A stretch of DNA of 55,290 nt, taken from IMG/VR virus record IMGVR_UViG_3300032006_000008, positions 1-55,290 of that record; one strand, written 5' to 3'. A program made the translations under genes and the position numbers. The notes beneath the pieces were generated by a model that saw only the letters and a list, made by a program, of their open reading frames with translations, was not told where the DNA came from and searched no databases. Below are positions 18,362-27,049 of this stretch, in pieces. This DNA comes from a virus. Positions within the stretch are counted from its first letter, which is position 1; every line of letters begins with the position of its first letter.

Positions 18362-18450
18362 CCTCCAATTGCGGGGGAGATTGTCTAAAAAATGGGATAT
18401 GTGGCTATAAAGACATAGAAACTTAGCTAGACACTGATAGTCATATATCC
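18362..18450 (+). ncRNA. Structured RNA element A (long stem, possible pseudoknot)
   Basis: The 117-base gap after the first early gene holds CCTCC (18362-18366)/GGGGG (18373-18377), a 5-bp hairpin. It is followed by GGATATGTGGCTAT (18395-18408) pairing with ATAGTCATATATCC (18437-18450): 14 bp without a gap, including two G-U pairs. The 28-base loop contains TAGACA (18428-18433), complementary to TGTCTA (18382-18387) in the 5' flank, so a pseudoknot is possible. There is no T-run after it, so it is not a standard terminator. Function unknown. Confidence 0.6.
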
Positions 18451-18477
18451 TATTTATACTACTAAAATCAAAATAAC

Positions 18478-25040: not shown

Positions 25041-25152
25041 ATGGGGAATATTGCTAGAGACTAGGTTGGCACATTCTTGTTAAGGTATGTGTTAGAATAG
25101 TTGAAAAAGTAATAAAAACTAAGGTTGGCTCTTTAGTTGATATATTCCCCAT
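25041..25152 (+). ncRNA. Structured RNA element B1 (long stem)
   Basis: The 208-base gap after the SSB-like gene holds two long stems. In B1, ATGGGGAATAT (25041-25051) pairs perfectly with ATATTCCCCAT (25142-25152). Inside, CTAGAGA (25054-25060) pairs with TCTTTAG (25130-25136) with one G-U pair. The word GGTTGGC occurs twice (25064-25070 and 25123-25129). No T-run follows and no ORF explains it. Probably a structured leader, processing site or ncRNA. Confidence 0.6.
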
Positions 25153-25156
25153 CAAT

Positions 25157-25220
25157 ATGAGGCTAGGTATTGCCAGTAGATTGAAAAGCACAACAGTCTA
25201 TGTTATGGCTCTAGCCTCAT
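25157..25220 (+). ncRNA. Structured RNA element B2 (three-part rod)
   Basis: ATGAGGCTAG (25157-25166) pairs perfectly with CTAGCCTCAT (25211-25220). Inside, GCCA (25172-25175) pairs with TGGC (25206-25209) and TAGATTG (25177-25183) pairs with CAGTCTA (25194-25200) with one T-G pair, closing a 10-base loop AAAAGCACAA. It begins four bases after B1 and ends 25 bases before the next ATG. It has no T-loop or tRNA geometry and no T-run. Confidence 0.65.
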
Positions 25221-26558: not shown

Positions 26559-26724
26559 CAGAAGAGGAAGTCCAGATAATATATTCTGGCAAACCTATCA
26601 AGAGTATTGCAATATGAAGCAACAAGATGAAATTATAAAATATCAAGTTGAAAATGAGCACCCAACAGATGCTGGGTCTGAAACTGGTATAGAATTGGAG
26701 CCTGGATATGAAAATAAAATCTAA
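26533..26724 (+). CDS. Small hypothetical protein
   Basis: 63 residues from ATG at 26533 (MQKNRRISDRRGSPDNIFWQ), chosen over the in-frame ATG at 26518 because AAAGGA sits at normal spacing before it. It has a basic N terminus and an acidic C terminus. It overlaps both neighbours. No recognised family. Confidence 0.6.
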   Translation: MQKNRRISDRRGSPDNIFWQTYQEYCNMKQQDEIIKYQVENEHPTDAGSETGIELEPGYENKI

Positions 26725-26965
26725 AACACTTTGGAATGGATTTGCCTCTATAAGCACCATTTTAATTGAAAGATGTAAAAGGAAAAAAGAGAATCTTGAA
26801 ATACAGCATGGTGATTCTATAATGGTAATACCGCTAGATAAATTAGATAGTCCTGATTGGATTCATAAAAAATCTTTTAAGGATAAATTTAAAAATAGGA
26901 AATATAGGTTATATAACTTTAAATTTGAGGAGACAAGGAATGTTAATCAAGAAAGCTTACTTTAA
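26708..26965 (+). CDS. Small hypothetical protein
   Basis: 85 residues, basic, with LEIQHGDSIMVIPLDKLDSP in the middle and KFKNRKYRLYNFKF at the C-terminal side. It overlaps the previous gene by 17 bases. It is followed at once by structured element C, whose stem begins at its stop codon. No recognised family. Confidence 0.6.
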   Translation: MKIKSKTLWNGFASISTILIERCKRKKENLEIQHGDSIMVIPLDKLDSPDWIHKKSFKDKFKNRKYRLYNFKFEETRNVNQESLL

Positions 26966-27031
26966 TTGGGGCTGGCTTCCTCTTGTTCATTTCCCTCATC
27001 CTCAATCCTCATCACAAAAGCTAGCCCCAAT
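26965..27031 (+). ncRNA. Structured RNA element C with CCTC-rich loop
   Basis: ATTGGGGCTGGCTT (26965-26978) pairs with AAGCTAGCCCCAAT (27018-27031): 14 bp with a single G-U pair. The 39-base loop is pyrimidine-rich and holds four CCTC words (26979, 26994, 27000, 27007), the core of the 16S anti-Shine-Dalgarno sequence. The next gene has AGAGGG as RBS (27041 region), which a loop CCTCT can pair with. It may control translation of the next gene or bind other RBSs. No T-run follows. Confidence 0.65.
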
Positions 27032-27049
27032 ATATAGAAGAGGGATATA

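What the first reader, a model, noticed from the sequence alone, without database searches (positions are those of the whole stretch)
26965..27031. Element C: stem-loop presenting four anti-Shine-Dalgarno-like CCTC words
A 14-bp stem with one G-U pair displays a 39-base pyrimidine-rich loop with CCTC four times. CCUC is the core that pairs with GAGG ribosome-binding sites. Downstream the RBS is AGAAGAGGG. The element could mask that RBS, or act as a mimic of the 16S 3' end that ties up RBSs of the many GAGG-led genes.
Basis: partly seen in the sequence, partly recalled or inferred. Interest (0 to 1): 0.7.

Follow-up and report, generated by a model that had tools for sequence, protein, structure and literature searches.

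The report
Phage RNA hairpin with C-rich loop
A virus of uncultured bacteria carries a small RNA hairpin with a long, C-rich, almost G-free loop; relatives carry one matching copy each, usually in a row of other undescribed RNAs, so it looks like a real but uncharacterised phage RNA rather than a simple mask for its neighbour's ribosome-binding site.

Summary
In detail: 26965-27031 is a 14-bp stem (one G-U) holding a 39-nt loop with CCTC four times. The loop is 41% C and 3% G, in a region whose strand is 12% C. The closest syntenic relative lacks it: the two flanking genes overlap there. Seven other distinct sequences from related phage contigs form one family of sense-strand, noncoding hairpins: a covarying 10-14 bp stem and a C-rich, G-poor loop of 44-47 nt, one copy per phage. 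In all seven it follows the SSB gene, beside a second conserved RNA. A model built without the window ranks element C first in the window (20 bits, E 0.004 unfiltered over 14.7 kb; 16 bits, E 0.13 over the whole window), so membership is likely, not proven. Nothing matches Rfam. Best reading: a phage structured RNA acting away from its neighbour, using the loop as single-stranded bait. The partner (a C-binding protein such as Rho, or purine-rich mRNA) is unresolved.

The parts
26965..26978 (+). 5' arm of element C stem (ATTGGGGCTGGCTT)
26979..27017 (+). 39-nt C-rich, G-poor loop with four CCTC words (26979, 26994, 27000, 27007)
27018..27031 (+). 3' arm of element C stem (AAGCTAGCCCCAAT)
   Evidence: covariation with relatives
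27036..27044 (+). ribosome-binding site AGAAGAGGG of the next gene
   Evidence: sequence
26708..26965 (+). 85-aa gene upstream; its stop codon abuts the stem; 80% identical homologue in L033
27050..27274 (+). 74-aa gene downstream; in relative L033 it overlaps the upstream gene (ATGA) with no element between
25157..25220 (+). B-type structured RNA, a companion family with invariant core and covarying stem
25041..25152 (+). A-type stem-capped noncoding element after the SSB gene
   Evidence: homologues in L030 (=L004) and L033 (=L005)

Best explanation
Element C is a copy of a phage-encoded structured RNA family (called C-type here). A 10-14 bp stem, conserved through compensatory changes, holds open a 39-47 nt loop that is C-rich and nearly G-free. 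It is transcribed with the early operon. It most likely works away from its neighbouring gene, with the loop as single-stranded bait that captures a partner. Shown: the hairpin, its sense-strand noncoding position, the covarying stem, the conserved loop composition, one copy per phage, and the lack of a conserved downstream gene. Inferred: membership of the window copy (likely, moderate score), transcription, and action in trans. The partner is not determined; I put a C-binding protein such as Rho and purine-rich phage or host mRNA at similar odds.
For: Seven distinct relatives with the same layout, found by fold and composition scan and by pattern. Stem pairs 96% standard, 5 pairs with double changes, covariation score above all 500 shuffles and above every slid control; adding the window (six representative sequences) gives 7 such pairs. 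A model built without the window ranks element C first in the window: 20 bits, E 0.0043 unfiltered. One confident copy per phage record. Loops are 30-43% C against 11-13% C in flanks. C-rich loops occur in 9 of 37 noncoding hairpins, 0 of 19 sense-coding and 1 of 22 antisense. The next gene differs between phages.
Against: The window copy scores only 16 bits (E 0.13) in a default whole-window search, and the genome-level search did not report it. Its locus differs: 1.9 kb downstream of SSB rather than right after it. In long RNA contexts the stem competes with other pairings. No expression data exist, so transcription and trans action are not shown. No conserved mRNA target was found.
Confidence: 0.55

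Rival explanations
1. Cis regulator of gene 27050: the loop pairs with the RBS and start region of the next gene, in a switch between the loop-exposing stem and a start-masking hairpin.
For: Loop to own start region -21.1 kcal/mol; 8 of 400 shuffled loops do as well; rank 3 of 68 start regions. Folding with 200 nt downstream gives about half the ensemble with RBS bases paired to the loop.
Against: Not conserved: in the other phages own-start pairing is unremarkable against shuffled loops and, except in L056 (rank 5 of 18), ranks in the lower half of all start sites; different genes follow at 27-646 nt. Locally the stem is 11 kcal/mol better than the alternative. The P value is uncorrected.
Confidence: 0.15
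2. Trans-acting CU-loop sRNA that binds Shine-Dalgarno or other purine-rich mRNA sites, as LhrC-type sRNAs do. (A sub-case of the best explanation that names the partner.)
For: C/U-rich exposed loop; four CCUC words in the window (P 0.002); C-rich SD-binding loops are known in low-GC bacteria (PMC4132741). Loops show somewhat better best-site pairing to their own early transcripts than shuffles in L036 and L056.
Against: No preference for start sites beyond composition in 7 of 8 phages; CCUC absent in two loops and UCCC in seven; strongest sites are not in the same gene across phages.
Confidence: 0.25
3. Protein decoy or landing site, Rho being the best-known reader of C-rich, G-poor unstructured RNA; the phage would titrate Rho or load it at a chosen place. 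(A sub-case of the best explanation that names the partner.)
For: Loops are C-rich, G-poor and rich in YC dimers (7-14 per loop); [quoted passage not shown] Composition is conserved rather than exact words.
Against: Loops are 39-47 nt, shorter than a typical rut site, and closed by a stem. No binding data and the host is unknown. Other C-binding proteins fit as well.
Confidence: 0.25
4. Chance hairpin or an unrelated element that merely resembles the family.
For: A stem this strong turns up somewhere in 4 of 60 shuffled windows; the model score is moderate.
Against: The hairpin also has the family's unusual loop make-up, sense orientation, early-operon intergenic position and shared stem sequence GGYUNGCUU/AAGYNAGCC.
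Confidence: 0.2

Closest known systems
LhrC family sRNAs of Listeria (and RsaE-like C-rich sRNAs of Staphylococcus)
   Same: CU-rich, G-poor single-stranded loops on stems (PMC4132741)
   Different: Those carry UCCC motifs shown to bind SD sites and end in a terminator; here UCCC is present in 1 of 8 loops, no terminator was seen and no start-site preference was found
Rho utilization (rut) sites
   Same: C-rich, G-poor, unstructured stretch rich in YC dimers
   Different: About half the usual length and enclosed by a conserved stem; Rho binding untested
Phage T4-type intergenic early stem-loops (mobile regulatory cassettes; from memory)
   Same: Modular intergenic hairpins between early phage genes
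   Different: No sense-strand sigma-70-like promoter found at the element, one copy per phage, and a conserved loop composition
Rfam 15 RNA families
   Same: none matched
   Different: No gathering-level match in the window, none at E 2 or below in L031 or L034, and only sub-threshold chance matches near element C

Membership tests
C-type phage RNA family defined here | 10-14 bp stem with compensatory changes on the sense strand | tested here: met
C-type phage RNA family defined here | 39-47 nt loop, at least 30% C and at most 14% G | tested here: met
   window loop 39 nt, 41% C, 3% G. The window is itself the short end of this range; the other loops are 44-47 nt
C-type phage RNA family defined here | Score against a model built from the other seven sequences | tested here: inconclusive
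   top hit, 20 bits, E 0.0043 unfiltered; 16 bits, E 0.13 with filters
C-type phage RNA family defined here | Position right after the SSB gene (common in the others, not used to define the family) | tested here: not met
   window copy lies 1.9 kb further down the same gene block
LhrC/RsaE-type SD-binding sRNA | UCCC or CCUC motif conserved in loops | tested here: not met
   UCCC in 1 of 8, CCUC in 6 of 8
LhrC/RsaE-type SD-binding sRNA | Pairing biased to translation start sites | tested here: not met
   no excess over composition in 7 of 8
16S rRNA 3'-end mimic | Similarity to the 16S tail above chance | tested here: not met
   only L061 of 8 at P about 0.01
Rho utilization site | C-rich, G-poor unstructured RNA | tested here: met
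   loop shorter than the usual 80 nt
Rho utilization site | Binds Rho and promotes termination | not testable with these tools
   needs biochemistry
Intrinsic terminator | GC stem, short loop, then a U run | tested here: not met
   loop of 39 nt, no U run

The most novel reading that the evidence does not exclude
These phages carry a row of several undescribed structured RNAs in the early operon, and the C-type member is an RNA bait that captures a host factor such as Rho or the translation machinery during infection.
Probability: 0.2. Interest if true: 0.8.

Novelty: new variant of a known kind. Interest (0 to 1): 0.55.

Why it matters
Phage-encoded noncoding RNAs are poorly catalogued. A covariation-supported RNA present once per phage across a group of uncultured phages, next to other conserved RNAs and absent from Rfam, gives a concrete family whose partner can be fished out directly. 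If the loop traps a host factor, it would be an RNA-based takeover device.

Tried and rejected
Exact-stem pattern scans: one GC-rich chance hit in viral contigs and 22 hits in genome contigs that were not followed. Repeat copies inside the window: none. Rfam: none. Isolate phage records: no DNA match. 16S mimic: not above chance except one relative. Start-site targeting: not above composition. Conserved phage mRNA target: none. Minus-strand hairpin: no better than shuffles and loses the G-U pair. The pattern hits L073 and L074 (60% GC contigs, no relation seen to this phage group) were treated as chance.

Full report
OBSERVATION. The window is a 55,290-base uncultured virus record. Its early genes run on the + strand from about 18 to 32 kb, including a Sak annealing protein, an SSB, DUF932, a methyltransferase and DnaB. 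Element C lies between an 85-aa gene and a 74-aa gene. The stem (14 bp, one G-U), the 39-nt loop and four CCTC words are as described. The CCTC count exceeds shuffled loops (P about 0.002) and the stem is rare in shuffles (4 of 60 whole-window shuffles hold one as strong). The loop is 41% C and 3% G on a strand that is 12% C locally. In short contexts the stem is almost always formed; with long flanks other pairings compete.

COMPARISON WITH THE NEAREST RELATIVE. L033 (same record as L005) keeps the gene order of this region, with 80% and 64% identity in the two flanking proteins, but has no element: the genes overlap as ATGA. So the element was gained in the window lineage or lost in the other.

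FAMILY. A Sak profile search gave a set of related contigs. A hairpin scan found clusters of stem-capped noncoding elements, mostly just after the SSB gene. Pattern scans with a companion element and with the C-type stem gave more contigs. A scan for hairpins with C-rich, G-poor loops found eight distinct sequences including the window's: L031 (identical in L058), L066, L075 (identical in L076-L078), L034, L061, L036, L056. L031, L066 and L075 are close to one another, so these eight represent about six lineages. In the seven relatives the element follows the SSB gene (its protein ends in VPF), within about 160 nt of the stop codon and with the B-type element or its like between. The stem covaries: 96% standard pairs, 5 pairs changed on both sides, score above all 500 shuffles and above slid controls. 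In an alignment of six representatives that includes the window, 7 pairs are changed on both sides. Non-Watson-Crick pairs are mostly G-U in the sense orientation, pointing to an RNA read from the coding strand; the hairpin scan itself allowed G-U and not A-C, so this is supporting rather than independent. There is one confident copy per phage record.

IS THE WINDOW COPY A MEMBER? A model from the seven others, never shown the window, puts element C first in the window: 20 bits, E 0.0043 without filters over 14.7 kb; 16 bits, E 0.13 by default over the whole window. The genome-level search did not report it. Membership is likely but not proven, and the locus differs.

If the loop were an anti-SD, CCUC should be kept and start sites preferred. 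CCUC is absent in L061 and L036. Mean pairing to start sites is no stronger than that of shuffled loops except in L066; in the window 87 of 100 shuffles bind as well or better. The 16S tail is resembled above chance only by L061. The downstream gene is a shared one in five phages (behind a further RNA element) and a different one in L036, L056 and the window, so masking of the neighbour's RBS is not the conserved role. A window-specific cis effect remains possible: the loop and the 27050 start region pair at -21.1 kcal/mol (8 of 400 shuffles), and some long-context folds use this pairing.

BEST READING. A sense-strand structured RNA with a conserved stem and a conserved loop composition, but no fixed words and no fixed downstream gene, fits a bait that works away from its neighbour. 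The partner could be a C-binding protein (Rho reads C-rich, G-poor unstructured RNA; PMC12691595) or purine-rich mRNA (as with C-rich sRNAs of low-GC bacteria; PMC4132741). Loops pair well with many sites in their own purine-rich early transcripts, somewhat better than shuffles in L036 and L056 (three phages tested, 60 shuffles each), but not at the same gene across phages. I cannot separate these with sequence alone.

CONTEXT. The companion B-type element has an invariant core (TAGGTATTGCCA ... TATGGCTCTA; most of these bases were fixed by the search pattern itself) and a covarying closing stem in 17 aligned sequences; the stem was not part of the pattern beyond its innermost pairs. Further types were seen but not modelled. 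Rfam 15 has none of them at gathering level in the window, and none at E 2 or below in two related loci, and DNA searches of isolate phages with two of the arrays found nothing.

LIMITS.

Noticed in passing
window 25157-25220; L031 3429-3517; L034 9650-9722; alignment A8: B-type structured RNA: TAGGTATTGCCA...TATGGCTCTA core with a covarying outer stem in 17 aligned viral sequences, not in Rfam. Two rows (L067, L072) have poor stems and may be chance pattern hits.
   Followed up: partly
window 25041-25152; L033 9780-9898; L036 9821-9945; L031 3619-3704: A/D-type stem-capped elements with a GGTTGGC hairpin near the 3' end, in the same arrays.
   Followed up: no
L033 5792-5898; L032 9683-9775: Another stem-capped element with shared CAAAAGTGCT near the 5' side and GGYGGAAGCTRCCTTG near the 3' side.
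   Followed up: no
L057 and L058, just upstream of the B-type element: A 40-nt core CTCGTAAAGCATAGCAAAGTACACGCTGTGGACTGCCCTG shared by two phages inside a stem whose sequence differs between them.
   Followed up: no
window 18390-18455: A 19-bp hairpin with a 28-nt loop in the noncoding region near the start of the early gene block; the strongest stem in the scanned early region.
   Followed up: no
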